Source: Candidatus Endomicrobium macrotermitis (GTDB lineage Bacteria; Elusimicrobiota; Endomicrobiia; Endomicrobiales; Endomicrobiaceae). Taken from it: a stretch of 53,411 nucleotides of DNA. The notes under the pieces are model-generated. The model was not told the DNA's origin, did not search any database, and saw only the letters and a list, made by a program, of their open reading frames with translations. Of this stretch, positions 1 to 53,001 are shown piece after piece. The stretch's first letter is position 1. Each line of letters begins with the position of its first letter. A program made the translations under genes and the position numbers. The stretch covers positions 1-53,411 of the forward strand of contig JAISVT010000041.1 in the NCBI GenBank assembly GCA_031271405.1, written 5' to 3'.

Positions 1-715
1 CTTTAAATGTATAAACATTCATAGAAGGATTCCCGTCTTTTGCTACCCATTTACCAAGTAAAAATTCCTGTGCGACAAATGTCTGATTACTGTCTATCAT
101 CTTTTTACTTTTATTACTCTTTTCTATAGGATTTTGTCCTTCCCAATAAGCATCATATTTACTAATATCATTCAAGATAAAAATATCTCTGTACTTTTTA
201 AAATCTTTGACAAACCTATTTTCACACTCTATAAATTTTTCAGATTTAGAGTTAATAACTTCTTTGCCTGATATCCACTTAATTAATTTTTCGTCATTAA
301 AGTAATATCTGCCTTCTCTTTCGCTAACAATTTTTACATCTTTATTTGCATCTAAAGAATCGTAAATAGAACTTTCATATTGAAAGGATTTTGAATATAC
401 AAAGAAAAACTTATTATCATTACAGTAATATTCTTCTAAATACCTGCCCATTTCTCCGTAATAACATGCCTCTATTTTCTCTAAACTTCCATTTTTATAA
501 TAACCTGTTAAGCCGGCTCCTTGTGTAGATTCTCCAAATAAGGATAATGTTTTTTTATCATATGTGGAAAATTTGGAATTAATCTCGGTATATTTTTTTC
601 TTATTTCTTTAATTATTTTATCCATGTTTATTTGCTGTTCAGACTTTACTTCAGCATTGCCATAAGATACTAATAAACAAATAATACTTAAAAACAAAAA
701 TACTATCTTCCTCAT
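1..715 (-). CDS. Secreted protein of unknown family, candidate immunity protein of the TpsA toxin (3' end outside window)
   Basis: The first 21 or so residues form a clear signal peptide (basic MRKI start, hydrophobic run, then SYGNA|EV), so the product should be exported to the periplasm or outer membrane. There is no lipobox. The rest, about 217 residues up to the window edge, is polar and rich in Lys, Glu, Tyr and Asn, with several YY/FF aromatic patches; I do not recognise the family. The start codon overlaps the stop of the large TpsA gene (ATGA, 712-715), so the two are translationally coupled. In CDI and polymorphic-toxin loci the gene immediately after the toxin C-terminus is normally the cognate immunity gene, and a periplasmic location fits a peptidoglycan-cutting toxin. 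Base composition is AT-rich like the end of tpsA and unlike the genes further on. The immunity role is inferred from position and signal peptide only. Confidence 0.72.
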   Translation of the reverse strand, partial: MRKIVFLFLSIICLLVSYGNAEVKSEQQINMDKIIKEIRKKYTEINSKFSTYDKKTLSLFGESTQGAGLTGYYKNGSLEKIEACYYGEMGRYLEEYYCNDNKFFFVYSKSFQYESSIYDSLDANKDVKIVSEREGRYYFNDEKLIKWISGKEVINSKSEKFIECENRFVKDFKKYRDIFILNDISKYDAYWEGQNPIEKSNKSKKMIDSNQTFVAQEFLLGKWVAKDGNPSMNVYTFK

Positions 716-6700: not shown

Positions 6701-8286
6701 AGCCCGCCGGCGTTTATTATCCCGCCTGACGTCAGAGAACCGCTTGCGTTCAGCGACATATCGCCTCCGCTCTGCAGCAGACCGTTGTTTGTTATTTCGC
6801 CGGTATTTATTTTCGTTCTTTCCGAAGATATTATTTTTCCGCCGGACTTATTTTCCGCTCCTGACGACGCAAGGCTTATTTCTTTCCCTTCAAGCGTTCC
6901 GGTATTTACAAGGTTTCCCGTATTTTGAAACGACAACGTCCCGCCTGCTTTTATGCCGCCGGCCGTTTGAACGTCTTTTCCGTTAAAATCAAACGTTATA
7001 TTGTTTCCCGCGTTTATTTTTCCGTCCGCGCTGCCGAAACTATCTGCGGACGCCGTGATGTTTTGAGCGGCGTTTATTTCGCCGTTGTCATTTATAATAT
7101 CTCCCGCAGCCGCGATCGTATCGCCTCCGGATTTTATCAAACCGGATATATTGCTTAAATCTTCCGCCGCGGTTATTTCGATATTTTGCGCGGCATTTAT
7201 CGCGGCATTATCGTTTTTTACGCTTTCCGCTTCTATGTCCGCGCTGCCATGCGCCGTCATTATTCCTGAATTTTCAAGAGCTTTTGACGTTTCTATTTTT
7301 ATGTTTCCGGCTGACGCGCCCTCCGCGCCTGCCGTGACGTTTCCGGATACGGTTATATTATCGTTTGCTTTTATCTGCGCGTCAGTCTTACTTGTTATGC
7401 CCGCTCCTATCTCTATCTTTCCGTCAGCGTTTATTGTTATGTCCGAGGCATCGCTTATCAAATTCGCGTTATCGGCAGTCTTAACGCCGAATCCGTTTTC
7501 CGTTGACATTATCTTTATCCTGTTTCCGTACATACTGCCGAACGCCCATGCGGACACCGCATATTTATCCGCGGGGTCATCTCCCGGATCTTCCGAAATT
7601 ATCTCCCATTCGCCGGTTTCTTCATTAAGCGCGTACTCCTTATTTCCCGCTTTTATATCTATGCTTTTTGCTTTAAGCTCCCCGCTCAATTTTGTGTATC
7701 TGCTTATGATTTCCACGGGATCGTTTGTTGTCAATCCCGCGTTTTCTATTTCCACCGCCCCGGCGGGCGACAGCGTAAAACTTTTGATTATTTCATCCGC
7801 GATATTCGGCACGCCCGTGACAAACACCGCCTTTTCCGTGTTTATGAAAATTCCGCCGTTTACGCTTATTCCGTAAGGGTTTGCGGTTATAAGCACGGCC
7901 TTTTGACCGGCTATCTCGACCGCTCCGTTTATCAGGCTTTTTTGCGCCGACATTATTTCATTGAGTATCACGCTTGCCATTGCTCCGGTAAAATTCGCGT
8001 TCGCTTCTATCTCCCCGCCTATTATCTGCGACTGCGAGGCCGTAAGCGAATTGTTGAGCACAACGCCTTTCGAATCGACATTGAATTCGTCATACTTGTT
8101 ATGCGACAGCCCTCTCGAATTCGGCGCGACTATATTTACCACGGGCACGCCGGTTCCCGCATGCGCTGCTACCGAAGGCTGATTCACCACGACAGCGTTA
8201 TGCGGCAGTATCTCTCCGAATGCCGCGCCGCTTTGCGCAACAACAAACGCAATTCCCGTAAGCAGACTTACCAGTTTCTTTTTCAT
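712..8286 (-). CDS. TpsA-family filamentous haemagglutinin/CDI-like exoprotein with C-terminal M15 peptidase domain
   Basis: A 2524-residue exoprotein of the two-partner secretion type. After a signal peptide (about 1-24, MKKKLVSLL...AAFG) comes a TPS/haemagglutination domain (about 25-280) with the typical ANPYGI motif near residue 135, a variant of NPNGI. A very long series of beta-helix repeats follows (SGGDLSV, AGNNITF, NVGNNAVLSGA types). The last 135 or so residues resemble M15 zinc peptidases of the L-Ala-D-Glu endopeptidase/VanY type: SAYRS, then SxHxxGxAxD at 2446-2455 (H2448, D2455 as zinc ligands), then DTPHF with D2498 and H2501. The likely substrate is peptidoglycan. I chose the ATG at 8286 because AGGTG lies 7 nt upstream; a GTG three codons earlier is possible. 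The cognate transporter is the TpsB gene at 11871-13595. Composition becomes AT-rich beyond about residue 2160, suggesting an exchanged toxin tip. Confidence 0.9.
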   Translation of the reverse strand: MKKKLVSLLTGIAFVVAQSGAAFGEILPHNAVVVNQPSVAAHAGTGVPVVNIVAPNSRGLSHNKYDEFNVDSKGVVLNNSLTASQSQIIGGEIEANANFTGAMASVILNEIMSAQKSLINGAVEIAGQKAVLITANPYGISVNGGIFINTEKAVFVTGVPNIADEIIKSFTLSPAGAVEIENAGLTTNDPVEIISRYTKLSGELKAKSIDIKAGNKEYALNEETGEWEIISEDPGDDPADKYAVSAWAFGSMYGNRIKIMSTENGFGVKTADNANLISDASDITINADGKIEIGAGITSKTDAQIKANDNITVSGNVTAGAEGASAGNIKIETSKALENSGIMTAHGSADIEAESVKNDNAAINAAQNIEITAAEDLSNISGLIKSGGDTIAAAGDIINDNGEINAAQNITASADSFGSADGKINAGNNITFDFNGKDVQTAGGIKAGGTLSFQNTGNLVNTGTLEGKEISLASSGAENKSGGKIISSERTKINTGEITNNGLLQSGGDMSLNASGSLTSGGIINAGGLLNILLSGNLINNFTITAKNLSVTAGNIINNNANITVEENAALKTDGIEDSNGRITSGGDLSVTINDKDFTAGGEYSAGGKLSFSGIKNFVNAGALSGGGIGITPAESFFNVSSIISSGDMKITSLAVKNQNGIIRAGNDLSISGSSLFNEKTAVTGSGTISAGNVVIGISGDIGNNSGKIESSGGMNISAANIVNKSGKLYGRAEIKGGNMTMTAGNIYNKSASIGASGNLQIKADNIVNEREADGLSFLGESVINAAALSVKGKTGESAKSFINGYGSVKAASSLSIWADNIINTAVIFPKSSGENYVLKRKVYSLGDAPGNLYAAADYAISGGGVMESLGGAELKTNRLDNISGNINAGGDLNILAEKINNAAHSVNAPAQYGGGALYASLAAGGSISGGNITITGINGTGNAAELNNIISIINAANTLKINADKIENKAVENINLIETRGISVTRNNYTPNIPYNGSYGIWWDETPSVLHSAAQAVLSGGITQITGAGILNESSVIEGRSRLEINAAELINRAFMFKDALQLFYETRGTSDEFNVPGGWKEINQSRRYTVNEEYTFVSQTAGEIKGGDVNISLSGNLIQDENSGALIRAQDEMNRAIYSNITAADGLKISAGNIYNYGGLQSGGLMDINAANDFMSYDAKLVAGSLKIFAGHDYYNGARVEFHEFSDSDGDGQFYINDPYVNGYGIFMVSAGDSEIRSGNLLSISGIQGTIRGNSNITMKNDGVFKSITYDKVWRVKVYKKGGLPGKIQGKIEGKIEILGNSTVVSENGSIKESGYVKEIGGDSTTQADKDIIIESILQKEETAYQSVNEDKLFGNSEKNITRHVKITNIGSSTKVGGNLELIAGNNINVLASSLESLAGIVSLTAGMDINVLAGEDYEGTETVKTKSGTFGFGKEDSESSESETKTAASVIKGQGVVIKAGNGAVITASDIESGQGGTMITAGNDINVLSETEVSKSKSSKESGNALTGSEMTMYYNEEGIIRGTNMKSVGNITLVSGKDITSISGNYEAVGDVNKIAGYAVNDQGVLEKSGKSGNVREYAAENYAISERFHEKTDGLLGAFTSIDAIISSMNPFHGFADGWEAGFRSILNPLDRSINIDIGLQGISASVSLKKETEREKTEERISKVNEIISGGNISLKASEDVTSIGTQMSAEGDINIEGNNILMLSAQNSVKSELSREEHTITTGMKVGNAYVDVGFAAKGLYDAEQALEKAAYELREMEKLNKEGKASNEAVEDARINVAMATANVANATISLAASAAGAATAASSSYGTGLYAAGFANYDTNKLSVITENTYATQGNLFANNINFKSANDMMQEGTNVYANNKITYDIGNGLTIKASKDTMTSERKSEHLSGGVSVGNNAVQVSASAGQSSERMRATSYSNSESIAKDIVMNVGNNAVLSGANVHASNDLTANIGNNLTVESLQDTYYAKGNSWDANVSVGIGPAGMGNFLGGSKSNAGNKSIGAGFNVGNSYTDSAWVGEQTTLTSANNANITAGNKTTVTGAVIGSESNNLTLNTKELEYSGLQDKEVSRSKGFGVRTSIGGNLTDRQDLNLSPSGSTSLSLKNTGSEKERVNKATIGEGTIIVDGSALEGDALAGLNRDLSKTQSETKERITNALDGSVTVDNRVFTSAGRASIAGDFENFDNNLGQIFNNITMNNIIVQVLKETLSDKNSLNLGGALKQYLGLEYDTREILDNDKLNKEINGLTNLNPEGAKDSLREMGEVYNEDEDLKKINLSTVDIEDKNGIKTINLSNLDMTDPNAIAGKLGGLGASDKTNADSRGKMASAIMDMMNYGNANTNTMTTEQWLSQTKDGISYANSLFDRTWDPISNERISTLDPRVQNWAADFVNETKDKLGINLRITSAYRSIEEQDATYAKGRRGIPGEKIVTDAKGGKSYHNYGLAIDVVAMEKNNRYANYGIVPSNLDLIGIGNRYGFDWGIRLKDGTIDTPHFQTPFGQKPSELYKQYLDNKEKK

Positions 8287-8441
8287 GTTTAGCACCTGTT
8301 TTGTTTACAATAATTTATATGCGGTACGGAGGCGTTAATTTTATGAGGCAATTGATGAAATATTTCGAGGTTATTTTCAATGGCCAGCGGTTAATTATTA
8401 CAGCGTTTATCAATCATTTATCATTAACCGTTAACACCTAG

Positions 8442-8471
8442 ATTATACCTCTTCGCGAACCTCTTAATCAA
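8442..8471 (-). promoter_or_regulatory. Sigma-70-type promoter for the tpsA gene
   Basis: On the minus strand a -35 box TTGATT (8466-8471) is followed after 18 nt by a perfect -10 box TATAAT (8442-8447). The predicted start near 8435 leaves a leader of about 150 nt before the tpsA ATG. The -35 box overlaps the stop codon of the upstream inverse-autotransporter gene, so tpsA and its downstream partner can be expressed independently of that gene. The AT-rich leader (8296-8435) contains repeated GTTAA/TTAATGATAAATGATT runs but no gene. Confidence 0.6.
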
Positions 8472-11400
8472 TAAAAATTATCCTTGTTTTTCACATTAGT
8501 TTCATAATTTAAAACGGGAGCGGCGTCCCCTCCGTACGATGCCGAGTTGATAAAATTATTATTGCCGGAAGCCGCGCCGTCAAAAGTTACGTTTCCTTTT
8601 AAATTCAGGCCGTATCTGCCGCTAACGCCGAATCTTTGAAAAAAGTTTGTATTGACGGTTATGCCCGCAGAATCCGCAATCGTAAGACCGTGTCCGGTGT
8701 CCGTATAGTATAAACCGTTGTTATACGCATATAAATTCGAACTTCCTTTAATGGTCATGGCGGATTCAGAATTATAATAAGCGGAATTGTTTGTCAGCCG
8801 CCCGTTGTTAAAGTTTTCAACGTAAATGCCTCCAAGCCCCGCGTTTCCCGCAACAGTATTGAAATCCAGCAAAGCTCCGTCGGCATTTATTACGGTTATG
8901 CCCGCCGATGTATTTGAAGATACGGTATTTCTTTCAATAACGTTCTGCCCCGTCAAATTTTCGCCGTATATGCCGCCGTAACCGCCGTTTTCAAAAACCC
9001 TGTTTCTGTATATATGCGCGCCGGAAACGCCGGAAATATAAATACCGCCGCCGGTATTGCCTTCGACAGTATTGTTGACGGCCGCAAAGTCCGGCGCATT
9101 GACCGCCCTTATGCCTTCGGCATTATTTTGAATATAATTTCCCGAAGAAATAACCGCGGAACCGCTTTCTATATTGATGCCTGTTTTTTCGTTTTCATAT
9201 ATGCTGTTGCCGCTAAACAGCACGCCGCTTCCGCTGATAAACCTGAACGCGTCCCCTTTGTTTTTATCGACAATATTGTCGGTTATAACGGTATCGGAAG
9301 CGTTTTCAAAAGACATTCCGTCCGAAAGGTTGGCCTCCGCCGTATTCCCCTCAAGGCGGCTTCCGCCGATATTTTGAAATGACGCTCCTTCCGAAGCGTT
9401 GCCGACAAAAAAGTTGTTTTCTACCGCCGTTTCTTTGACATTGGCAAACTGCCCGCCGCGGACGCCGTTTTCTTCAAAATAGTTAGCTCTTACCGTACTT
9501 GATGAAATGCCGTCGGCGTAAATGCCGTTCGCGCCGCTGCCTGCGATCCTGTTGCCTAAAACCTCCACGCGCGTGCCGCTGTCTATAAATATCCCGTCCG
9601 AATAATTTTCCCTTAATCTGTTGTTGTAAACGATAACGTCCGAAACGTTTTGGAAACTCATCCCGTTTGAAGCGCTCCTTGAAGCCGTACTGCCGCTTAC
9701 GGAAAAATTACCGGAATTTTCAAAACGCATTCCGTCGTTTCCGCTGTTTTCTATAATATTTCCGTCAAAATAGCCGCCTTTAAGATTTGAAACATAAAGC
9801 CCGTTTACTTCGTTTGCTTTCAGATTGTTCTTTCTTATGTCGGCATCGTCCGCGGCGTATATATATATTCCCGACCGCGTATTGCTGCTTACAGCATTAT
9901 CATAAAGTATGATACCGCTTTCGCCCGAAGCATATATGCCGTTCTCTTTGTTTGAATTTATCGTATTTACCTCGGCCAGCAGAAATGAATTTCCCGAAGC
10001 GTATATGCCGTTCAGCGTATTGTTTTCCGCGGTATTATCCGCAATAATCGTTGAGGAAGAATTTTCAACGGCTATGCCGTTTCCGGAATTGCCCAGCAGC
10101 CTGTTGCCGATTATTTCATTTCCGGTTCCGCCGGACAAAAATATTCCGCTTTGAAGATTGCTTTCGGATAAATTGTCATTGATTGCCGACGCTTCGGAAT
10201 TTATGATATTTACCGCGTTAAAACTGTTGTTTCTCAGTTCGTTAAGATATATTACCGTGCCCGAACTGTTTACGGCATTTATGCCGTATCCGTTTTCTTC
10301 GAATCTGTTCGCCTGAATATAAACTCCGCCGCCGGATCTTACAAGAATGCCTTCCCTGTCATTTTTTGAGATCACGTTTTGTTCGAAGAATATGTTTTTC
10401 CCGGCAAGTTCCGCCCCGGTGGCGTTGCCGCTGATTATGTTGTTGTACGCATAAACGCCGCCCGTAGAACTTTCCACGCTGAAACCTTTTTCAAAATTGC
10501 TGAACCTGTTATTGCCTATATAAAAACTGTTTTTATTGTTTACTATTTCAAGCCCCGTGCCGGTTTTTGAACTGCCTTCAAACTCTATGGATGTTATTGA
10601 AAAGGTTTCCGTGCCCGATGAATCGACTCTAAACGCGGTTATCGCTCCGGAAACGCTTATGACCGGATTTCCGGACGTTATCATGCTTAAATCGACGCCG
10701 CGCGCTTCCATTTCCTGAGGCCCTGTGACCAAAACGTTGTTTGCCGCATGCCCGCCGAAATCCAAAGGCTCTCCGAGTGCATAATTACCGCCGAGCAAAA
10801 GCATAACGGCATTTTTTCCCGTAACGGCTTTGTTTATGCCGGCGCCTGCCGCCAAAGAGGCGGGATTTTTAAAAGTTCCGTCTCCTGTCCCTTCCGGGGA
10901 TACGACGGTAAAATGATACGGATGGCCGTCTTCGTCGGAAACGATGTCGTCGAAACGTCTTCTGCCTTCGCCGTATGCGCGAATATGCATATCCCTTTGA
11001 ACCATTATGCCCATCCTGTCTTTAACGCTCTGCGTTCTTACCTTTATCAGTTTCAGTAAGCTGCCGAAAGGATTTTTGCCCTGCAGCAATTTTATGAAAT
11101 TTAACGGAATGTTCACGGACGCGCCCGCCTGCCACTCGCTTCCGGTCAAATGATCGTACCGGTAAACGGAACCGTATATGGAGAAGATGCTTACGGGCTT
11201 GTATTCCGCCCTCCCTTTGACCCCGTGATATCGTTTTGCGACTTTATCCGAAGCAAAATTGTAATATCCGGCAAACAGCCTTAACTCTCCGATGATTTCC
11301 GGCACCGGCATATTCCATCCTATTTCGCCGTCAAAGCCGCGCATGGCGGCCTCGTAATAATGCGTCGCGGCTATGTTGTTGTTTTCGAAAACATTGTAAG

Positions 11401-11857
11401 ATTTGCCGAGAAAATAATCGTTATTGCCGAAAGGAATATATGCGTTTGCCCTGAAATCCGCCCTTTTGCTCAAAAATTCAAGGCCTATGCCCGCCTGCCG
11501 GTAGTTATTTCCCAAAGAAGTTTTTCTTGCGTCATAATAAGCGTTGATTCCGTAAATCGCGCCCTTTTTAAAATATCTTTCGCTGTAATATCTGTATCCC
11601 GCGCCGAAGTTCATTTCGGAAGAATGACTGCTCAAAACTTCTTCTCCGGTCATGCTTGCGCGCGGCGATATGAATAAAAAAGAGCTTTCGTTTCCGGCTA
11701 TAGGCAGCATCAAATCGATATAACTGTCCCATTTATCGTCCGCGCCGTTTACGCCGGCGGTCATATCGCCCGAATAAGGAAAAGCTCCGGCAAAAAGGTT
11801 ATGCGCCGCGAAAGCCGGCAATACGGCCCAAAAAATCAGAAACGCAAGTTTTCTCAT
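8468..11857 (-). CDS. Inverse autotransporter (intimin/invasin-type barrel) with right-handed beta-helix passenger
   Basis: A 1129-residue outer-membrane adhesin candidate. A signal peptide (about 1-23) is followed by an inverse-autotransporter beta domain (about 30-290), recognisable by its GAGYRYYS, AIYGINAYYDARK, NYRQAGIGLEFLS and DFRANAYIPFG stretches. A linker with VVSPEGTGDGTFKNPASL (about 320-345) precedes a right-handed parallel beta-helix (about 370-1080) built from some 25 or more roughly 22-residue coils of the type NNxxxNxxxGIxxxxSxxxxIxxN, as in PF13229 proteins. The barrel should sit in the outer membrane and export the C-terminal helix (type Ve secretion). It starts 13 nt after the TpsB stop with AAGGGA before the ATG, so it is in the same transcription unit. 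Ligand unknown; the beta-helix could bind or cleave polysaccharide, but no catalytic residues can be named. Confidence 0.85.
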   Translation of the reverse strand: MRKLAFLIFWAVLPAFAAHNLFAGAFPYSGDMTAGVNGADDKWDSYIDLMLPIAGNESSFLFISPRASMTGEEVLSSHSSEMNFGAGYRYYSERYFKKGAIYGINAYYDARKTSLGNNYRQAGIGLEFLSKRADFRANAYIPFGNNDYFLGKSYNVFENNNIAATHYYEAAMRGFDGEIGWNMPVPEIIGELRLFAGYYNFASDKVAKRYHGVKGRAEYKPVSIFSIYGSVYRYDHLTGSEWQAGASVNIPLNFIKLLQGKNPFGSLLKLIKVRTQSVKDRMGIMVQRDMHIRAYGEGRRRFDDIVSDEDGHPYHFTVVSPEGTGDGTFKNPASLAAGAGINKAVTGKNAVMLLLGGNYALGEPLDFGGHAANNVLVTGPQEMEARGVDLSMITSGNPVISVSGAITAFRVDSSGTETFSITSIEFEGSSKTGTGLEIVNNKNSFYIGNNRFSNFEKGFSVESSTGGVYAYNNIISGNATGAELAGKNIFFEQNVISKNDREGILVRSGGGVYIQANRFEENGYGINAVNSSGTVIYLNELRNNSFNAVNIINSEASAINDNLSESNLQSGIFLSGGTGNEIIGNRLLGNSGNGIAVENSSSTIIADNTAENNTLNGIYASGNSFLLAEVNTINSNKENGIYASGESGIILYDNAVSSNTRSGIYIYAADDADIRKNNLKANEVNGLYVSNLKGGYFDGNIIENSGNDGMRFENSGNFSVSGSTASRSASNGMSFQNVSDVIVYNNRLRENYSDGIFIDSGTRVEVLGNRIAGSGANGIYADGISSSTVRANYFEENGVRGGQFANVKETAVENNFFVGNASEGASFQNIGGSRLEGNTAEANLSDGMSFENASDTVITDNIVDKNKGDAFRFISGSGVLFSGNSIYENEKTGINIESGSAVISSGNYIQNNAEGIRAVNAPDFAAVNNTVEGNTGGGIYISGVSGAHIYRNRVFENGGYGGIYGENLTGQNVIERNTVSSNTSAGITVINADGALLDFNTVAGNAGLGGIYVENFNNGRLTNNSAYYNSESAMTIKGSSNLYAYNNGLYYTDTGHGLTIADSAGITVNTNFFQRFGVSGRYGLNLKGNVTFDGAASGNNNFINSASYGGDAAPVLNYETNVKNKDNFY

Positions 11858-11870
11858 AAAAATCCCTTAT

Positions 11871-13595
11871 CTAAAAGCTCATCTTCGCTTCGACCCTGCA
11901 ATACAATACGCTGCCTTCGTCTTCCAGATAGCTTTCGTTGTATATACTCCTGCTCCAGGAAAAAGACGCATTGAAGTATTTCGTCGAAAAAGACGCTCCG
12001 GCTCCGCTTCCGGCAAGCTGATAATCCTGCCCGTAAGCCTCGTGCCTTGCGTAACCGTAATCTATAAACCCGTTGATCGACGTTTTATTTAAAAGACCGA
12101 GCCAGCCGTTTCTTCCGAAAATACTCGAAAGAGTCCAATACAAATCGTTTCTGAAATATCCTCCGCGGTCGCCGCTTACGCTGCCTTCCTTAAAACCTCT
12201 GACGGAACTTTGCCCGCCTATTGAAACCTGTTCCGAAGCGTAAAGTATATCCGGCGAATACTGCGCGTTAAGCGAAGCGGAATAAGAACTTTTCAGCCCG
12301 ATCAGCGGTATTTCGAAAGGCGCCGAATATCTTGCGTATAAACCGTAGGAATCAAACTGCGCTTTCGGAGCGCCGGTTATTTCGTTGTTTTTGGCGGCGT
12401 CGAATACGTCAAGGCCTCTGCTATACGAAAGTTTTGTGTAAAGGCTTCCGCTTTTGATATAGTGCGTTGAAGTTAAAAATCCGGAAGCCGTGCTTAGTTT
12501 TCTGCTTGAAACCGAAACTTCCTCGCCCGAAACATTGTTTTTTGTGTCTTTTACCGCCATTTCCGCGCCCGCCGAAAGCTTGTATGACTGCGACCGCTTT
12601 ATGACCATTTCAAGGCTTGCATTATTGTTATTTGTGCTGCCGTCCGTGCGGAATGAACCTATATTTATTCCGGGCGGCGTATCATAATCGCTGTAAAAAG
12701 ACGAAAACATAAAAGTAAAATATCCGAACGGAATGCTTAATGACGCGAAATAACTGTTGCTTGCTTTGTTATCGTAATTTCCGTCAATATTGCGCGAGTA
12801 ATTGAAATATATGTTATCGTTGAGCATAAAAAGGTTATCGATATTTACGGACGTATCGGCTTTATATATGCCGGTGCTTTTTATTCCGCTGTTGTCAGCG
12901 CCGAAATTCACGGTAAACCTGTCTTCGGCGTTATTTGTAACTTCCACTACGGAATAACCGTTTTTGGAACCCGGCAGAATTTCCATTGCGGCATTGCCTG
13001 TCTGAAGCCGGTTCATCTGTTCGATTCCCTGATCCAGATCTTTTATGTTAAGCAGGCATCCTTGAGGAAACGGATAAAAAGAAAAGCGCTGCAGCGACTG
13101 TGAAAAACCCGAATATCTTCTGCCGCTTTTGCGCTTGAATACAATGTCTTCTATATATCCGTCAACGATAACAAAAGTAAGAATGTCTTCGGCAATGGTA
13201 TTGCCGTCAATATAAATTCTTGCAGAAGCGTATCCCGCGTCAAAATACAGCTGCTGCAGCTTTTGCTGTATGTCCGAAATATCCTCCGCGCCTATATTCA
13301 GTTCCGAATACGGCGCTAAAATTCCATTTATTTCTTTTTCCGAAATTCCCGGAACTTCGGAATGCCTGACATCTATTTTTTTCAAACGCTTTTTCGGTCC
13401 TGAAGTTTTACGGAGGGGTTTCTGCTGCGGTTTTTCGGTTTCTCTTGTGAAGCGCGACCTGTTTTCAATTTCCATCTGCCTTATATACTCTTTATACATG
13501 GTATCGATATTGCGTTGGATCTCCTCGGGAGTCGCGGCAAAAGATACGTTTATAAAGATTGCGGTAATCGTAGCAATAAGCAATATTCTTTTCAT
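11871..13595 (-). CDS. TpsB-family two-partner secretion outer-membrane transporter (FhaC/ShlB type)
   Basis: A 574-residue Omp85-superfamily pore that would export the TpsA protein at 712-8286 across the outer membrane. Signal peptide about 1-20 (MKRILLIATITAIF...FA|A); a polar linker with KPQQKPLRK; a ShlB-type POTRA region (about 70-150, with GYASARIYI and VDGYIEDIVF); then a 16-strand barrel. The conserved loop-6 motif VRGF is at 465-468 within IGGQSSVRGF, and the chain ends in Phe as barrels do. In this order (tpsB, inverse autotransporter, tpsA) the transporter and its substrate are split by an unrelated adhesin gene, which is unusual. Its start lies 27 nt after the stop of the OmpA-domain gene; no strong ribosome site is visible. 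Family assignment is firm; pairing with this TpsA is inferred from proximity, it being the only TpsB here. Confidence 0.92.
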   Translation of the reverse strand: MKRILLIATITAIFINVSFAATPEEIQRNIDTMYKEYIRQMEIENRSRFTRETEKPQQKPLRKTSGPKKRLKKIDVRHSEVPGISEKEINGILAPYSELNIGAEDISDIQQKLQQLYFDAGYASARIYIDGNTIAEDILTFVIVDGYIEDIVFKRKSGRRYSGFSQSLQRFSFYPFPQGCLLNIKDLDQGIEQMNRLQTGNAAMEILPGSKNGYSVVEVTNNAEDRFTVNFGADNSGIKSTGIYKADTSVNIDNLFMLNDNIYFNYSRNIDGNYDNKASNSYFASLSIPFGYFTFMFSSFYSDYDTPPGINIGSFRTDGSTNNNNASLEMVIKRSQSYKLSAGAEMAVKDTKNNVSGEEVSVSSRKLSTASGFLTSTHYIKSGSLYTKLSYSRGLDVFDAAKNNEITGAPKAQFDSYGLYARYSAPFEIPLIGLKSSYSASLNAQYSPDILYASEQVSIGGQSSVRGFKEGSVSGDRGGYFRNDLYWTLSSIFGRNGWLGLLNKTSINGFIDYGYARHEAYGQDYQLAGSGAGASFSTKYFNASFSWSRSIYNESYLEDEGSVLYCRVEAKMSF

Positions 13596-45778: not shown

Positions 45779-45796
45779 TCTCAAACTTGTCTTTAT

Positions 45797-45883
45797 GGAG
45801 AGGTGTCCGAGTGGTTGAAGGAGCTAGTCTCGAAAACTAGTATACAGGAAACTGTATCGCGGGTTCAAATCCCGCCCTCTCCG
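45797..45883 (+). tRNA. tRNA-Ser (anticodon CGA)
   Basis: An 87-nt class II tRNA. Acceptor stem GGAGAGG (45797-45803) pairs with CCTCTCC (45876-45882), discriminator G at 45883 as serine tRNAs require. The anticodon arm is CTAGT-CTCGAAA-ACTAG with anticodon CGA at 45831-45833, reading UCG. A long variable arm (TACAGGAAACTGTA) and the TpsiC sequence GGTTCAAATCC are present. CCA is not encoded. Confidence 0.97.
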
Positions 45884-45911
45884 TATCATAGTTCTGCTCT
45901 AAATTAATAAG

Positions 45912-45950
45912 TCCCCGAAATGGTTATACCACGTCGGGGATTTTCATTTT
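45912..45950 (+). terminator. Terminator after tRNA-Ser
   Basis: Stem TCCCCGA (45912-45918) / TCGGGGA (45934-45940), inner TGGT/ACCA pairing, followed by TTTTCATTTT. It is itself flanked by CTGCTCTAA (45894-45902) and the near-inverse TTAGAGCACAG (45957-45967). Confidence 0.7.
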
Positions 45951-46044
45951 GCGAACTTAGAGCACAGTTAATTTGGGGGTTTTACGCCAATTTAACTAAA
46001 AACAAGCTTTCCATTCTCTACTACCCACAAAAAGAGTTCGGAAA

Positions 46045-48801
46045 TCATGCCCTTCTTTTAAGTTTTTTTGTGCCATTTTTTGGAATTTGTGCTGTTTGTT
46101 TACAAGTTGGATAGTTTATGCAGCCTAAAAACCGCCCTTTATTTCCTTTTCTTGCAACAAGAAAACCGCCACAGCTTGGGCATTGGACGGGGCGTTGGAT
46201 GATAGAGGTGTCATTGTTTGTAAAATCACAAGCAGGGAAGTTTGAACAGCCTAGAAAGTAATTGCTACGTTCATTTGCTTGTCGCATTATTAATCTGCCG
46301 GTTTTGCATTTTGGGCATTTAGGGTTGTTGATAATTAAGTTTTCTCCGTCAGGTATCTCTAAATGGCAAAGCGATTTTATTTCGTTTGTAAATTCACTTG
46401 CGTTTTGATCTGGGGCGAGTAAAAAAGTTTTATTTCGTGTTCGTGTTAATGCAACATAAAACAAACGTCGTTCTTCTGCGAAGGCAAAATTATCTTCGTT
46501 CGGCAATAATAATTGTAAGACGGGATCATCAGCAATTCTGTTTGGAAAGCCTAACTTGTCATTTTTCATATTGAGTATGATTACATTGTCAGCTTCAAGT
46601 CCTTTAGCTTTATGAACTGTAAGGAATTCCATTTTTAACTTATCGTACTTTTTGTAAATAACATTACTGCCTTTTATAATGAACGGCTCTATATCACTGT
46701 TCACTGCACCTACAGAGTAGTTTCTATTTAAGCGTAATAATTCAATATCGTAATTCGTTCGCCCTAGTAGTAAGATACTTTTATCTTCGCCATATTCATT
46801 CACAATATAATCTAATAATCGCTCCAATACAGCAGCAAAATTATTTTCGTTGTAGTAGTGTATGCAAATTGGCTTTTTACAACTTTTGCCTGACCGCAAC
46901 ATTTTCGGTATTTGTTTTTCGTTTTTCATTACGAATGAGCTTGCAATATTTATCAATTCTTGTGAATTGCGGTAAGTGTTTTCAATTTTTGATACTTGTG
47001 TTTCACCCCAATATTTTGTGAAGTCCATAAAGAGATTTGCATCACTTCCGGCAAACCTATAAATTGATTGCCAATCATCCCCAACACACATGAGATGTGC
47101 AGAAGTTTTTTCAATAATTGCTTTAATCAATTTATATCTATCCATACCTATATCTTGATATTCATCAATAATAATGTATTTGTATGGCGAATTAATACCG
47201 TTCTTGGTAACGACTTGGGTTGCATTATTTATCATATCGCTAAAATCAATAGCATTCTTTTCCGCAAGACGTTTTTGATAATACACGAATATTTTTTCAA
47301 TGATACTTATAAAATGCAAAGTTCTTGTATTTATAAAATGATTCATATAATTATTGCTATCAATATTTGAGAATTGCTTTTTCAAAACATCAAAGTAAGT
47401 GTTATCGTAATCGTTTGACTTGAATAGTTTTATAAAAGTGCCGCATAGTTTTATAAATTCTTTATTTGTATTTTCGGTTTGTATTTCTTGAAGCAATGCC
47501 AACATTTCTTCACTTGATATCGGTGTGAGTTTAACATTATTTGAAAATAAAATTTCTTTAAGTTTAGGCAATAATTTGCCGTCACTTTGAAAATGTGAAT
47601 AAGTTTCAACAAGTTTTGTTCCATATTCTGCATGTGTTTCTCTTTTCCATTTCATACCGTCAATATATTTTTCTTCTTCTATTGCAGAAAGCCATGGGCA
47701 GCGGTTATCTTGGTTAACACCAAAATGTTCAAGGTAAATATCATAATCAGAAAAGTAAAAATCTGGGCGGTATCGTTTCCTAAATTTATCTGTTTGATAA
47801 GGATATTCTTTTTCATACTCATATTTAATGCCATTCAGGAATAGGAAATTTGCAATTATAAGTTCTTCAATGCTTTTAACCTTTTCGCCTTTAATAGTCT
47901 TTCGTTCATCAGCAGTTGCTTGTCTATATTTAGCATTAAGAGTTTCGAAATCTGCATATTGTTCGCTCTCTATTTTTTCACCTAAAGTTCCGTCTGACTT
48001 TAACTCCATAGGAATATTAAAATAATAACCGATGAATTCAAGGAAAATTTGTACATCATCTTGGTGCTTAATAAGTTCTTTTGAAAAGTAATCTTCAATG
48101 TAAGCATCCATATTGTCATCTATATCAGGTCGTTCTTTGGAATGCTCTGTAATTATATCAAGCCCAAGCTTATGAAATGTTACGGCAGATATTCCCAATG
48201 ATAAATTACGATTAACACGTTCTTCCAATTCACCGGCAGATTTTTTTGTAAAAGCAATAAGTAAAATTTCTTTTGGCAAAATACCGTTTTTTAATAAGTA
48301 TAAAACTTTGCCTAATATTGTAAGCGTTTTTCCGCTCCCGGCTCCGGCGATAATAAGATTGTGATTTTCATTAACAACTATGGCTCGTCGTTGTTGTTTA
48401 TCCAGTGACTTACCGCCAATATTGTCAAAGAATGTTTGATTTTTTTCAAGCGAGTCTTTTACAAAAACTTCGTTTAGTTTATTTAGTTTTGTAAGTATAT
48501 CAATTTGCGCTATCTTTAATACATAATATTCACCATAGCCGTAATAATCTTTACGAATATTGTATTTAGCAATCTTTTCAAGTGTATTGTTAATACGCAT
48601 TTTAATTGCCGTGCGTTCGGTTATGTCTAGATAATGTTCTGGATTGTTGGTAATTATCGTTACCAGTACTTTCATATCGCTAACAATTTGCCTATATGCC
48701 GGGTCACTTTCAGTTTGTTTGCGATGAAATGCAGCTCTTTGTCTGATATAGGTAATAAAACATACAACGCCAAAAACGGCAATAATAGCAATAATTATCA
48801 T
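46045..48801 (-). CDS. Membrane-anchored UvrD/HelD-like superfamily 1 helicase with nuclease-like insert and topoisomerase-type zinc fingers
   Basis: A 918-residue protein. An N-terminal membrane helix (about 2-19, IIIAIIAVFGVVCFITYI) is followed by a coiled region, Walker A motif IIAGAGSGKT (near 152), Ia LLIAFTKKSAGELEERV, motif II IIDEYQD (near 546), GDDWQSIYRFAGSD, and C-terminal AHKAKGLE-type TVHKAKGLEADNVI and RRLFYVALTRTRN. Between Ia and II lies an insert (about 305-420) containing YRPDFYFSDYDIYLEHFG, which looks like a PD-(D/E)xK-fold nuclease core with ExH in place of ExK. The last 75 residues hold two C4 zinc fingers of topoisomerase type (CPKCKTGRL...CSNFPAC and CPSCGGF...CINYPTC). 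It is AT-rich and sits at the end of the mobile block, so defence or element maintenance is possible. Confidence 0.85.
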   Translation of the reverse strand: MIIIAIIAVFGVVCFITYIRQRAAFHRKQTESDPAYRQIVSDMKVLVTIITNNPEHYLDITERTAIKMRINNTLEKIAKYNIRKDYYGYGEYYVLKIAQIDILTKLNKLNEVFVKDSLEKNQTFFDNIGGKSLDKQQRRAIVVNENHNLIIAGAGSGKTLTILGKVLYLLKNGILPKEILLIAFTKKSAGELEERVNRNLSLGISAVTFHKLGLDIITEHSKERPDIDDNMDAYIEDYFSKELIKHQDDVQIFLEFIGYYFNIPMELKSDGTLGEKIESEQYADFETLNAKYRQATADERKTIKGEKVKSIEELIIANFLFLNGIKYEYEKEYPYQTDKFRKRYRPDFYFSDYDIYLEHFGVNQDNRCPWLSAIEEEKYIDGMKWKRETHAEYGTKLVETYSHFQSDGKLLPKLKEILFSNNVKLTPISSEEMLALLQEIQTENTNKEFIKLCGTFIKLFKSNDYDNTYFDVLKKQFSNIDSNNYMNHFINTRTLHFISIIEKIFVYYQKRLAEKNAIDFSDMINNATQVVTKNGINSPYKYIIIDEYQDIGMDRYKLIKAIIEKTSAHLMCVGDDWQSIYRFAGSDANLFMDFTKYWGETQVSKIENTYRNSQELINIASSFVMKNEKQIPKMLRSGKSCKKPICIHYYNENNFAAVLERLLDYIVNEYGEDKSILLLGRTNYDIELLRLNRNYSVGAVNSDIEPFIIKGSNVIYKKYDKLKMEFLTVHKAKGLEADNVIILNMKNDKLGFPNRIADDPVLQLLLPNEDNFAFAEERRLFYVALTRTRNKTFLLAPDQNASEFTNEIKSLCHLEIPDGENLIINNPKCPKCKTGRLIMRQANERSNYFLGCSNFPACDFTNNDTSIIQRPVQCPSCGGFLVARKGNKGRFLGCINYPTCKQTAQIPKNGTKKLKRRA

Positions 48802-48849: not shown

Positions 48850-50493
48850 TCAGATATTTATGATATCGGACTGTTCTTGCCAGTCAAGTGTTTTTATATT
48901 GAGAATATGCTTGATAAGTAAATTTTGTGGTTGTGTACCTTGCAGTATAGCTGTTACAATTTTGGGTGATAAGAACGACAGTTGTAAGATTTTTTCTACA
49001 TATCTAGTGCTAACCGTATTTTCATCTGCAATTTGCTGAAATGTTTTATTCTCATATAGAATTTGCTTGTTCCATCTATAACTCATAAGAATTGCTTTTA
49101 TTAAAGTTTGATTTTTATTGACAGCTTGATTGTAAAAACTGCCCATTATAATTTTACTGCCATTATCTATTATGGCTATTTTATAGCTTTTAGCAAAAGT
49201 TATTTCTTCGTTTAAATATTCGGCCGGCAAAACCTTCATTTTGTAGCCTTCATAAATACTTCTTAATAGTTCAATTATCTGCATTTTACTGATGGTTAAA
49301 GTTATTTCATTTTTGAAAACTTGAACTTTCTTGATTAAGAATTTTGTTATATCTCTTGTGATAGTATAGCTTTGAAAGTTCGCTATAAAAATTTTTTGCT
49401 CATCTACGTTTAGATTGTCATAAAGTTTTAAAATTTCTGCTTTGTTGTTAAAAATCTCGGCAAACCAATCATCAATAAATTTTTCTATTTCATAAGCTGA
49501 TATTTTTGTGATATTGCCAACTTTTGATTTTTCATGTCTTATTATTGCCTGACTTACATAATACCTATGTTTTTTTCCTTTAGAGCCTGTGCTTCGAGCG
49601 GGGCTCATATAATTGCCTTTATCGTCAAATATTTTACCAGACAAAAGACTGTGGGTTGGTTTATATTCTGCCCTTTCCACTCTATTATCTGCCATTACTT
49701 CCTGCACTTTATTGAAAACTTCAATATCTATTATTCCCTCATGCTCACCCTTATACCAAACGCCATTATGCCCAACTTCTCCAATGAACGCTCTGTTTAA
49801 TAAAATAGAATTTACATTGCCAACGCTCAAGCGCTTACCTGTTTGACTTGTAATATTATTATCATCTAACCAATGTTTTACGTTTGCCACGCTTCTTAAT
49901 TCTAAATATTTGTTGAAAATTATTTGAACTGATTTTGCGTGTTCTGACGGATATATTTTCTTATCCTTGCGGTAATATCCCATTGGAGGAGAGCCGCCCA
50001 TCCACATTCCTTTCTTTTTACTCGCCGCATATTTATCACGTATACGTTCTCCCGTAACTTCACGTTCAAACTGTGCAAAAGATAAAAGCATGTTAAGCGT
50101 AAGCCTACCCATACTAGTTGTTGTATTAAACTGTTGAGTTATAGACACGAAAGAAGCTTGTTTTTTATCAAACACATCAACTATTTTGCTGAAGTCATGT
50201 AGACTTCTTGTAAGCCTGTCTATTTTGTAAACAATAATGATATTTACCAAATCGTTTTCAATATCTTTTAAAAGTTCCTTTAACGCAGGGCGTTCAATCG
50301 TCCCGCCCGAAAAACCGCCGTCATCATACTGCTTTTCAACTAAAACCCAGCCTTCATGCTTTTGGCTCTTAATATACGCTTCACACGCCTCCCTTTGGGC
50401 TTGTAAGCTGTTGAATTCAAGCTCCAAGCCCTCTTCGGAGGATTTCCTTGTGTAAATCGCACATTTAATCTGCGGTTTTTCTGTTTCTTTCAC
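48850..50493 (-). CDS. Large serine recombinase (integrase)
   Basis: A 547-residue site-specific recombinase of the phage large-serine type. The resolvase domain (about 1-150) has the catalytic Ser in CAIYTRKSSEEG and the downstream IIVYKIDRLTRSLHDFSKI and SMGRLTLNMLLSFAQFEREVTGERIRDK helix. The recombinase domain (about 165-270) includes GGSPPMGYYRKDKKIYP and LLNRAFIGEVGHNGVWYKGEH. The C-terminus is long; the zinc ribbon appears degenerate, lacking the usual Cys pairs. I took the GTG at 50493 with AGGGG 5 nt upstream; an ATG at 50520 and a GTG at 50532 are alternatives. It would integrate or excise the neighbouring phage-like genes. The 28-nt overlap with the DUF2924 gene suggests coupling. 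Confidence 0.9.
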   Translation of the reverse strand: MKETEKPQIKCAIYTRKSSEEGLELEFNSLQAQREACEAYIKSQKHEGWVLVEKQYDDGGFSGGTIERPALKELLKDIENDLVNIIIVYKIDRLTRSLHDFSKIVDVFDKKQASFVSITQQFNTTTSMGRLTLNMLLSFAQFEREVTGERIRDKYAASKKKGMWMGGSPPMGYYRKDKKIYPSEHAKSVQIIFNKYLELRSVANVKHWLDDNNITSQTGKRLSVGNVNSILLNRAFIGEVGHNGVWYKGEHEGIIDIEVFNKVQEVMADNRVERAEYKPTHSLLSGKIFDDKGNYMSPARSTGSKGKKHRYYVSQAIIRHEKSKVGNITKISAYEIEKFIDDWFAEIFNNKAEILKLYDNLNVDEQKIFIANFQSYTITRDITKFLIKKVQVFKNEITLTISKMQIIELLRSIYEGYKMKVLPAEYLNEEITFAKSYKIAIIDNGSKIIMGSFYNQAVNKNQTLIKAILMSYRWNKQILYENKTFQQIADENTVSTRYVEKILQLSFLSPKIVTAILQGTQPQNLLIKHILNIKTLDWQEQSDIINI

Positions 50494-50884
50494 CTTCACC
50501 CCTAAAAAACAATCTTCCATTCCATTGCACACCTGTTATTTTACGCGCTATTGCCGATAAACTTTTATATACTTCGCTTTTGTATACAAAGCCATCTTTG
50601 ATAACTTCAACCTCATATTTTTCACCTTTATATGAGCGTATAAGTTTTGTACCAACTGTAAAAACTATATCTTCTTTTTGTGATTTTCCTGATGCATATT
50701 CTCGCGTCGCTTTTTCTAAAGCGTTATTGAGTGCTTTTAAGTCGATTTTATGTTTCTTGGCTTGTTGATGCCAATAAATATATTTAACAAGCATCTGTTT
50801 ATTAAGTTTTGGAATGGGTATTTTTAAATATTTATCCCAAAGTCTTACAATTTCTTCTCTTGATAAGTTATTTAGTTCGTTCAT
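50465..50884 (-). CDS. DUF2924 family protein
   Basis: A 139-residue protein with the DUF2924 pattern: an N-terminal LSREEIVRLWDKYLKIPIPK, then GTKLIRSYKGEKYEVEVIKDGFVYKSEVYKSLSAIARKITGVQWNGRLFF (about 75-127), a compact domain with the conserved SLSAIAxxITGxxWxGxxFF end. Such genes frequently sit beside large serine recombinases in prophages and may assist recombination or act as its accessory factor; the biochemistry is not known. It overlaps both neighbours by 17 and 28 nt. Confidence 0.85.
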   Translation of the reverse strand: MNELNNLSREEIVRLWDKYLKIPIPKLNKQMLVKYIYWHQQAKKHKIDLKALNNALEKATREYASGKSQKEDIVFTVGTKLIRSYKGEKYEVEVIKDGFVYKSEVYKSLSAIARKITGVQWNGRLFFRGEGERNRKTAD

Positions 50885-51083
50885 ATTTTCTAGGTTCCAA
50901 GTATTTTTTAACTGTAATAATCTTTCTTTGTGCAGTCTTGTCTTTTTTATATGCTTTTAAAATCAAAACTAAAAATGACATTGTTACTTCAAAAAGCATT
51001 TTCTCAGGGGTTATTGGCCTTCCATGCGGATTGCCAGATGTACCTTTTTTAAACCTTTTTTCGACTGGCGGTATTCGTACCAT
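50868..51083 (-). CDS. DUF5681-type protein, short
   Basis: A 71-residue protein with the motif FKKGTSGNPHGRP at about 11-23, the DUF5681 hallmark. It is otherwise basic and helical (KKDKTAQRKIITVKKYLEPRKYERTK). The ATG at 51083 was chosen because AAGGAG stands 7 nt upstream; a 13-codon extension upstream lacks any site. A second, longer DUF5681 gene flanks the terminase on the other side. The family is common in phages next to terminases and may have a DNA-binding packaging role. Confidence 0.72.
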   Translation of the reverse strand: MVRIPPVEKRFKKGTSGNPHGRPITPEKMLFEVTMSFLVLILKAYKKDKTAQRKIITVKKYLEPRKYERTK

Positions 51084-51131
51084 AACTCTCTCCTTACACA
51101 CATTACCGCTTACTAAAAGCACTAAGTCAAG

Positions 51132-52610
51132 TTAATAAATATTGCGAAACCACACCCTGTTAGTGGTCACTTCATGAGTCAGAAGTTGTGATAAGCTATC
51201 ACATTGATCATCATGTTTGCCATTGGGAAATGTGATTATTTCTTTTTCAAATGAAAGCCACCATTCTGGTTTATGTTCTGGAAATAAAACAGTTCCATTT
51301 TCAATAAGATGCGATATATTTTTTAATCTTGTAGCTTTATCGTTTTCTGGCTTAACAGGTATTACAAAATTGTGATACTTTGTTCTTAAATTTTGGACTA
51401 AACCAATGCCGCTGTTTGTATCTTCTATAATTATTCGAGAGACTACTTGTGCAAAGCATTTGTATTTAATTGTCATTTCTTCTTTAAGTTGTATTGCCTT
51501 TTTAACAAGTGCTGGAAATTCCAATTTTTCCCTAAAAACATCCAAAATATAAATTTTACCACGGCATTCCATTGAATCATAAGCTGCCAAATAAGTTATG
51601 CAAACAGAATAGTCATTATGCTGTTCAATCTTACTTGCCGTATCCCAACTCTGGCAAATTCTGCATCCCCCTAAGCGTCCCCATACATTATTTTCTAAGT
51701 CTTTAAATTTATAGAATTTTAGCCATTCTCTTTTTATAACATTCCCGCCTCTTGAGGTTGGATTTTGCTGATATTGCCCTGCAAAATTATAGCTTCCCAT
51801 ACTACTTTTCGTTTCGTTAAGTTTGACGATATCTTCTCTTTCAGGATGCAATACATCCCCTACTTTGCGTTTATATATTATTTTTCTGCCCAAAGGATTT
51901 TTAATTTCAAATGTCTCATCTTCTTCTGCTATTATTGGGATTTTAATAGTTTTAAAAGAAAGGTCTATTTCCTGCAAATGTCCGGTAAAATCCATCTCAT
52001 GAGAACGCTGCATAATTACAAGAATTTTACCAGTCTTCTTGTTGTTTAATCTTGAAATAAGAGTGTTTCCATACCAATCATTAACTTTTTCCCGGATTGT
52101 ATCTGAATTTGCATCTTTTGGAGCTATAGGGTCATCAACAATTATTATGTCTCCACCCATTCCAGTAAGAGTTCCACCTACAGAAGTGGAAAATCTTCCG
52201 CCGCCTTTCGTAGTTTGAAAATCACTGACTTCTTTTTTATGTTTTGATAATCTGGTGACGGGAAAAATTTCTTGATACCACTGGCTTTCTATAATTCTTC
52301 TACAATCGAGGGCAAAGTTAGCTGCCAAATCATCAGAGTAACTTACACAAACAATTTTTGCTTTAGGATCATGACCTAAAATAAAAGCTGGCAAAGCAAT
52401 GGAACAAATTATTGATTTCATATATCTGGGAGGTATATTTATAATTAATTTATTTTGGGTTCCTTTTATTAATTGCTCAATCTCGTAACAAATAACATTC
52501 ACATGCCAATTATCGAGATATTCGTTAACTCCATCAACTTCTCTAAACACCTTGAGTACAAAACTTTTGAAATCACTACGTAAAAAAGATTGTAATATTC
52601 TTTCATTCAT
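51132..52610 (-). CDS. Phage terminase large subunit
   Basis: A 492-residue packaging motor ATPase/nuclease. The N-terminal ATPase shows a divergent Walker A in NIPPRYMKSIICSIALP (about 62-78), a Walker B in GDIIIVDDPIAPKD (about 150-163), and the coupling segment ILVIMQRSHEMDFTGHL. The C-terminal RNase H-like nuclease has ICQSWDTASKIEQHNDYSVCITY (about 310-332), SRIIIEDTNSGIG (about 395), and DDQCDSLSQLL near the end: the three acidic clusters of the phage psiM2-type family. The ATG at 52610 overlaps the upstream DUF5681 gene as an 8-nt ATGAATGA. Defines the element as a tailed-phage relative. Confidence 0.92.
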   Translation of the reverse strand: MNERILQSFLRSDFKSFVLKVFREVDGVNEYLDNWHVNVICYEIEQLIKGTQNKLIINIPPRYMKSIICSIALPAFILGHDPKAKIVCVSYSDDLAANFALDCRRIIESQWYQEIFPVTRLSKHKKEVSDFQTTKGGGRFSTSVGGTLTGMGGDIIIVDDPIAPKDANSDTIREKVNDWYGNTLISRLNNKKTGKILVIMQRSHEMDFTGHLQEIDLSFKTIKIPIIAEEDETFEIKNPLGRKIIYKRKVGDVLHPEREDIVKLNETKSSMGSYNFAGQYQQNPTSRGGNVIKREWLKFYKFKDLENNVWGRLGGCRICQSWDTASKIEQHNDYSVCITYLAAYDSMECRGKIYILDVFREKLEFPALVKKAIQLKEEMTIKYKCFAQVVSRIIIEDTNSGIGLVQNLRTKYHNFVIPVKPENDKATRLKNISHLIENGTVLFPEHKPEWWLSFEKEIITFPNGKHDDQCDSLSQLLTHEVTTNRVWFRNIY

Positions 52611-53001
52611 GAGATTTATCCTTAATCCGTTTTGCAAAATCATTTATTATAAATGTATCCATTTCTTTTGAAGCTGTAAGTTTACTCATTTTTTCAGCTT
52701 CTTTTGATTCAACTATATTAGCTTGGGCGATAACCATTCCTGCTGCTTTTTGGTCTCCGGTTACTGCCTTATTTGTTAATTGTGTAGCAATTGCTTGTTT
52801 CTTTGTTATTATCTTTTCTTTTCCATTTTTTTGTTTAACAGTAATTTTTTCGTTCAGAGCTTCTCCGAAAATGGTTGCGAAATTTTTATCACCTTTGGGA
52901 CGTCCATACGGGTTTCCTGAAGAGCCTTTTTTAAATTGGCTATGTTTTGGTGGGTTTTTATAACCAACTTTAGTGTGCTTGCATTTTATTGTTGATTTCA
53001 T
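52603..53001 (-). CDS. DUF5681 family protein, possible small terminase subunit
   Basis: A 132-residue protein with the DUF5681 motif GYKNPPKHSQFKKGSSGNPYGRPKG (about 13-37) followed by a helical region (TIFGEALNEKITVKQKNGKEKIITKKQAIATQLTNKAV). The position just before the large terminase and the basic, helical nature would suit a small terminase or DNA-recognition subunit, but that is inference. It starts 1 nt after the methyltransferase stop with GAGGAG upstream. Confidence 0.78.
   Translation of the reverse strand: MKSTIKCKHTKVGYKNPPKHSQFKKGSSGNPYGRPKGDKNFATIFGEALNEKITVKQKNGKEKIITKKQAIATQLTNKAVTGDQKAAGMVIAQANIVESKEAEKMSKLTASKEMDTFIINDFAKRIKDKSHE

What the first reader, a model, noticed from the sequence alone, without database searches (positions are those of the whole stretch)
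46045..48801. Helicase with a membrane anchor, nuclease-like insert and two zinc fingers, near a tRNA
This combination in one 918-residue protein is uncommon: SF1A helicase, a PD-(D/E)xK-type core with ExH inserted between motifs Ia and II, a membrane helix and topoisomerase-type zinc fingers. Its place at the end of a phage-like element, in AT-rich DNA, makes anti-phage defence or superinfection control plausible.
Basis: partly seen in the sequence, partly recalled or inferred. Interest (0 to 1): 0.6.

Follow-up and report, generated by a model that had tools for sequence, protein, structure and literature searches.

The report
Prophage-edge helicase with built-in nuclease
A prophage carries, right next to the tRNA where it is inserted, a DNA-unwinding motor with a DNA-cutting domain built into it; the protein belongs to a widespread, sporadically distributed family that travels on phages and plasmids, from which the ordinary E. 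coli 'helicase IV' seems to descend by loss of the cutting domain.

Summary
On the MINUS strand, 46045-48801 encodes a 918-aa SF1A helicase of the helicase IV group. It has an N-terminal hydrophobic helix, two Top1-type zinc ribbons and, in the domain 1B position, a PD-(D/E)XK domain (residues ~300-430). AlphaFold2 models that domain at pLDDT 96. Its profile matches T7 endonuclease I (E=1.4e-5) and its fold matches Vsr-type nucleases. The acids E313, D347 and E358 are invariant in 58 relatives. The usual ExK lysine is replaced by an aromatic residue, while helix residue K386 is conserved (57/58). The gene is AT-rich cargo (33% vs 44% GC) between tRNA-Ser(CGA) and a prophage serine recombinase. 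Only 6 of 295 genomes of the phylum carry the domain. Relatives occur on plasmids and at prophage ends (13 of 27 viral contigs within 2 kb of an end; 2.9 expected). A tree places E. coli helicase IV, which lacks the nuclease, inside the nuclease-carrying clade (AU p=5e-49 against separation), so the nuclease was probably present early and lost at least twice. Anti-phage or anti-plasmid defence is the most likely role but unproven; defence-gene neighbourhood enrichment was inconclusive.

The parts
46045..48801 (-). 918-aa helicase-nuclease gene (helicase IV group, SF1A)
   Evidence: ORF; Pfam UvrD-helicase/UvrD_C and 2 Zn_ribbon_Top1; NCBIfam best NF008276 helicase IV, 344 bits, below cut-off 543; AF2 pLDDT 85
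48730..48798 (-). N-terminal hydrophobic (membrane-anchor-like) helix, residues ~2-24
   Evidence: sequence; KD mean 2.97; helix 2-32 in model; present in only 11 of 58 relatives
48325..48348 (-). helicase motif I (Walker A, AGAGSGKT, residues 152-159)
   Evidence: sequence; near-invariant in alignment
47512..47904 (-). inserted PD-(D/E)XK nuclease domain, residues 300-430 (E313, D347, E358, H359, K386)
   Evidence: AF2 pLDDT 96.2, pTM 0.89; T7 endonuclease I profile match; Foldseek; conservation
46228..46317 (-). zinc ribbon 1, residues ~829-858
   Evidence: Zn_ribbon_Top1, two stretches; C829, C832, C852, C858 conserved
46075..46185 (-). zinc ribbon 2, residues 873-909
   Evidence: best Zn_ribbon_Top1 stretch
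45796..45884 (+). tRNA-Ser(CGA), probable integration target
   Evidence: ARAGORN; the same tRNA without the element in G002 and G001
45885..45953 (.). post-tRNA element edge with terminator-like hairpin (ACCACGTCGGGGATTTTC), shared with an element at another tRNA-Ser in G003
48850..50532 (-). large serine recombinase (integrase)
   Evidence: Resolvase + Recombinase; phrog_95 integrase 4.5e-91
50465..50884 (-). DUF2924 protein next to the recombinase
50868..51122 (-). short DUF5681 protein
51132..52643 (-). phage terminase large subunit
   Evidence: Terminase_6C; phrog_38 1.5e-107
52603..53001 (-). DUF5681 protein (phrog_26239)

Best explanation
It is cargo of an integrated prophage-like element: a single-gene helicase-nuclease of the helicase IV group. 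SHOWN by sequence and models: SF1A motor; PD-(D/E)XK (T7 endonuclease I/Vsr-like) nuclease in the domain 1B position; two zinc ribbons; hydrophobic N-terminal helix; sporadic, mobile distribution; position between the tRNA and the recombinase. INFERRED: the anchor holds the protein at the membrane, where foreign DNA enters; the zinc ribbons and motor load on single-stranded or branched DNA, such as forks, gaps and ends of incoming or fast-replicating phage or plasmid DNA; ATP-driven 3'-5' translocation feeds the duplex or branch to the inserted nuclease, which cuts it with E313/D347/E358 and probably K386 in place of the missing motif lysine. The lysogen would thereby be protected against competing phages or plasmids. 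The confidence given is for the defence role; for the architecture and the cargo position it is about 0.9 or higher.
For: Nuclease fold and motifs. Helicase. Cargo position and edge. Sporadic: 2 of 4 genomes of the genus, 6 of 295 of the phylum. Mobile: 71 plasmid records with at least 80% coverage; 13 of 27 viral contigs of 20 kb or more carry it within 2 kb of an end, 2.9 expected, at most 11 in 20,000 simulations; serine recombinases directly before it in two viral contigs, L148 and L149; tRNA-Met then helicase in four more. Some neighbours are defence genes: BrxL+PglZ, DrmD, DUF262 pair, multiubiquitin, PLD+AAA, methyltransferase. Prophage-borne defence and helicase-nuclease defence (Gabija, Hna) are established precedents (PMC11087260 abstract; PMC13381803).
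Against: No defence assay; no PADLOC model of this architecture. Known defence genes near it were few once cross-hits were removed: L078 (BREX) and L087 (DrmD), plus single ShosA and PDC model hits, among 28 loci, against one CARF/Csx1 protein and a few weaker model hits around 28 control loci; integrases in 5 of 28 against 1 of 28, p=0.19. The canonical nuclease lysine is absent. The membrane helix is not conserved. No conserved operon partner.
Confidence: 0.45

Rival explanations
1. It serves the mobile element's own DNA metabolism: a helicase with a branched-DNA (resolvase-like) nuclease that processes forks or recombination intermediates during the element's replication, excision or repair.
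For: T7 endonuclease I, the closest sequence match of the insert, is a junction resolvase (and general knowledge); PHROG class is DNA metabolism; next to recombinases; UmuD nearby in L022 and a related protein in L172.
Against: It sits outside the recombinase, at the att edge, in unrelated prophages, where non-essential cargo is usual; it also occurs beside host-like genes without phage genes in G003 and G007; the related recombinase next to tRNA-Ser in G009 has no helicase beside it.
Confidence: 0.3
2. The nuclease domain is catalytically dead and works as a DNA-binding wedge or domain-1B substitute for an ordinary repair helicase.
For: The position of the endonuclease I lysine K67 is aromatic in nearly all relatives; E. 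coli helicase IV works without the domain (helicase activity in PMC8655204).
Against: E313, D347, E358 and Y379 are invariant and K386 is 57/58 over 58 sequences, some only 29-33% identical to the window over the domain; dead domains do not usually keep all acids.
Confidence: 0.15
3. An RNA-polymerase-recycling HelD.
For: SF1 fold; 6wvk among the Foldseek hits.
Against: In B. subtilis HelD the 1B position holds a clamp arm (PMC8655204); here it is a nuclease. UvrD and PcrA score far better.
Confidence: 0.03

Closest known systems
DNA helicase IV (HelD) of E. coli, NF008276 / PRK11054
   Same: SF1A core; same clade (99/96 support with plasmid and prophage relatives); best NCBIfam match
   Different: E. 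coli protein is 684-690 aa, has no nuclease insert and has a different N-terminus, and is too short for the zinc ribbons; this protein scores 344 bits, below the 543 cut-off
T7 endonuclease I (PF05367), a PD-(D/E)XK junction resolvase
   Same: sequence profile of the insert matches 2pfj/1m0d/3cae/1fzr at E=1e-5 to 2e-4; acids align; 30 of 52 relatives hit PF05367
   Different: ExK is E-H-F here; embedded in a helicase; the window's own copy alone does not reach PF05367; dimer bridge untested
Vsr / EDxHD nucleases (I-Bth0305I, Vsr, AbaSI, NGO0050)
   Same: best nuclease folds in Foldseek, TM up to 0.58-0.74
   Different: low significance (E 0.04-0.2), 12-16% identity; stand-alone enzymes
Gabija GajB/GajA
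   Same: UvrD-type motor coupled to a nuclease; PADLOC GajB hits over the helicase core
   Different: the nuclease is a separate OLD-family protein (PMC10822852); none here
Hna helicase-nuclease
   Same: single protein, helicase + PD-(D/E)XK, antiphage (PMC13381803)
   Different: SF2 DinG-like helicase, C-terminal nuclease

Membership tests
DNA helicase IV group | SF1A helicase motifs and placement in the helicase IV clade | tested here: met
DNA helicase IV group | NCBIfam equivalog cut-off (543 bits) | tested here: not met
   343.9 bits; so a relative of, not the equivalog of, E. coli helicase IV
PD-(D/E)XK nuclease superfamily | alpha-beta-beta-beta-alpha-beta core | tested here: met
   AF2 pLDDT 96.2 with that order; nuclease folds in Foldseek
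PD-(D/E)XK nuclease superfamily | catalytic acids (E in helix 1, D, E) | tested here: met
   E313, D347, E358 in 58/58
PD-(D/E)XK nuclease superfamily | lysine in the (D/E)xK motif | tested here: not met
   aromatic F360 at that place; conserved K386 in the next helix may replace it. Members with a migrated lysine are known to me from general knowledge only
T7 endonuclease I (PF05367) | profile match | tested here: inconclusive
   family profile matches the PDB entries and 30/52 relatives hit PF05367, the window copy alone does not
T7 endonuclease I (PF05367) | domain-swapped dimer, junction resolution | not testable with these tools
   needs protein
Gabija | adjacent GajA (OLD nuclease) | tested here: not met
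   neighbours are tRNA and recombinase
known defence system in PADLOC 2.0 | full-length match to a system model | tested here: not met
   only helicase-core matches among the best 25 of 44 models shown
prophage cargo at the att edge | between integration target and recombinase, variable slot | tested here: met
   other cargo at the related edge in G003:C3; no cargo in G009; far end of the element not in the assembly
defence-island gene | enriched near known defence genes | tested here: inconclusive
RNAP-recycling HelD | clamp arm in the 1B position | tested here: not met
   a nuclease domain occupies it

The most novel reading that the evidence does not exclude
An undescribed single-gene antiphage/anti-plasmid helicase-nuclease family spread over bacteria and archaea by prophages and plasmids, from which the housekeeping helicase IV of Enterobacteria and Vibrio was domesticated by losing the nuclease.
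Probability: 0.35. Interest if true: 0.75.

Novelty: new variant of a known kind. Interest (0 to 1): 0.52.

Why it matters
Such proteins are annotated simply as 'UvrD-helicase domain-containing protein', so the built-in nuclease and the mobile lifestyle go unseen. If the nuclease is active, this is a compact machine coupling unwinding to cutting in one chain, with a nuclease where UvrD has domain 1B. The tree offers an origin for E. [quoted passage not shown] That makes its role testable by comparison.

Tried and rejected
Plus-strand reading of the coordinates: many stops. Single-sequence scan of genome and viral collections found nothing; the alignment query found the family. A first reading as strong defence enrichment (DrmA, DrmD, HmaA, BrxH, DpdE) was withdrawn: they are all cross-hits of one protein, L087:13113-16292. 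Integrase enrichment in genome loci alone is not significant. A far attachment site in the window's assembly was not found: the contig ends inside the element, and purC, which follows the tRNA in G002, lies elsewhere. C51:593-621 is a tRNA-Asp, not an att site. No conserved operon partner. Literature: no paper on this architecture found in the open library; the PD-(D/E)XK survey of 2012 is not held, so earlier mention cannot be excluded. One V. parahaemolyticus plasmid hit that may be a virulence plasmid was not opened.

Full report
WHAT IS THERE. The coordinates are right, but the gene is on the minus strand: 918 aa, ATG start. It carries an SF1A helicase core (UvrD-helicase 1.4e-45, UvrD_C 5.2e-14) and two Zn_ribbon_Top1 domains. 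The best NCBIfam model is DNA helicase IV (NF008276, 1.9e-102, 344 bits, below its 543 cut-off). The first 18 residues are strongly hydrophobic and the model makes residues 2-32 a helix. The full-length model (pLDDT 85) resembles D. radiodurans UvrD, PcrA and Rep.

THE INSERT IS A NUCLEASE DOMAIN. Aligning 58 insert-carrying proteins (window included) with E. coli-type helicase IV shows that residues ~265-445 have no real counterpart in the latter. Within them E313, Y329, E330, D347, F348, E358 and Y379 are invariant, K386 is 57/58 and H359 53/58. AlphaFold2 on the insert alone with 52 sequences gives pLDDT 96.2, pTM 0.89, in the order helix-strand-strand-strand-helix-strand-helix. A profile of the insert finds four T7 endonuclease I sequences in the PDB (E 1.4e-5 to 2e-4), and 30 of 52 relatives hit Pfam Phage_endo_I. 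Foldseek's nuclease hits are I-Bth0305I, NGO0050, AbaSI and Vsr, at low significance. The endonuclease I motif E-T-K is E-H-F here, so the canonical lysine is missing; K386, in the helix after the third strand, is the obvious substitute (inference). PMC8655204 places the clamp arm of B. subtilis HelD at the same 1B position, so this position has taken different inserts in different SF1 branches.

SETTING. Upstream on the same strand lie a large serine recombinase, DUF2924, DUF5681 and a terminase large subunit. The contig then ends at 53411, so the element's far end is unknown. GC is 32.6-34% in helicase, recombinase and terminase region against 43.5-44% in host genes. Downstream is tRNA-Ser(CGA), 160 bp away. 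In the same genus, G002 has the same host gene and tRNA-Ser followed directly by host DNA. In G003 another tRNA-Ser is followed by a sequence matching the window's post-tRNA stretch, including an identical ACCACGTCGGGGATTTTC, with a recombinase remnant further on and different genes between (DUF488, DUF2971); a methyltransferase gene lies beyond the remnant. In G009 a 57% identical recombinase sits by tRNA-Ser with no helicase between. The helicase therefore occupies a variable slot at the attachment edge.

DISTRIBUTION. Full-length copies: 4 of 41 near genomes, the window's own included; the nuclease domain in 6 of 295 genomes of the phylum; 71 plasmid records; bacterial and archaeal genomes and about 30 viral contigs. 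In 27 viral contigs of 20 kb or more, 13 carry the gene within 2 kb of an end, against 2.9 expected and at most 11 in 20,000 random placements. In L148 and L149 serine recombinases precede it at the prophage end. In L154, L156, L158 and L174, which are close relatives of each other, a tRNA-Met stands at the contig end and the helicase follows. Prophage boundaries in IMG/VR are predictions and some of these contigs are near-duplicates, so the effective number is smaller than 27. In G003 and G007 the gene stands beside host-like genes.

EVOLUTION. On helicase-core columns only (insert excluded), 54 insert carriers and 12 non-carriers form the helicase IV group apart from UvrD (100/100). E. coli-type helicase IV lies inside the carriers (99/96 with L022, L172 and L023), and short Bacilli forms lie inside another carrier group (100/99). 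Holding the carriers together is rejected (p-AU 4.8e-49). The simplest reading is one early gain and at least two losses; the root comes from four UvrD outgroup rows, and composition differs in some rows.

FUNCTION. Defence or superinfection control fits the cargo slot, the sporadic distribution, the helicase-nuclease pairing and scattered neighbours: a DUF262 pair, multiubiquitin protein, PLD+AAA, methyltransferase, BrxL and PglZ, DrmD. But a matched control did not give a convincing excess once cross-hits were removed, integrase proximity in genome loci alone was not significant, and no experiment exists. Hence 0.45 for defence, 0.30 for service to the element's own DNA metabolism, 0.15 for an inactive nuclease.

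VERDICT. A real and well-supported new variant of the helicase-nuclease theme, shared by a large family, with an unexpected link to E. coli helicase IV; the biological role remains to be tested.

Noticed in passing
L094, L096-L099 (Bacilli and one uncultured bacterium): Minimal helicase IV relatives of 465-510 aa without N-terminal domain, nuclease insert or zinc ribbons; an independent loss on the tree.
   Followed up: partly
window 712-13595, minus strand: Very large exported proteins: 2527-aa filamentous-haemagglutinin-like protein, 1129-aa repeat protein resembling a beta-helix, and a 574-aa ShlB/TpsB-like transporter; looks like a two-partner secretion locus (from sequence, not searched).
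   Followed up: no
L063 (G003:C3:4000-16000): Degraded element beside another tRNA-Ser with recombinase remnant, DUF488 and DUF2971 genes and an N6/N4 methyltransferase nearby; its edge matches the window element.
   Followed up: partly
L029 and L030 (Aminobacter and Rhizobium plasmids): Helicase preceded by a conserved ~462-aa hypothetical gene with a 25-base gap, and followed by a PLD-like + AAA-domain gene pair.
   Followed up: no
L148:8972-9598: 208-aa protein of unknown function (phrog_36795) between the prophage recombinases and the helicase.
   Followed up: no
L031-L033 (MT839742, MT839452, MT838125): GenBank 'Bacteriophage sp.' records of 4-6 kb whose main content is this helicase; they may be bacterial or plasmid fragments rather than phages.
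   Followed up: no
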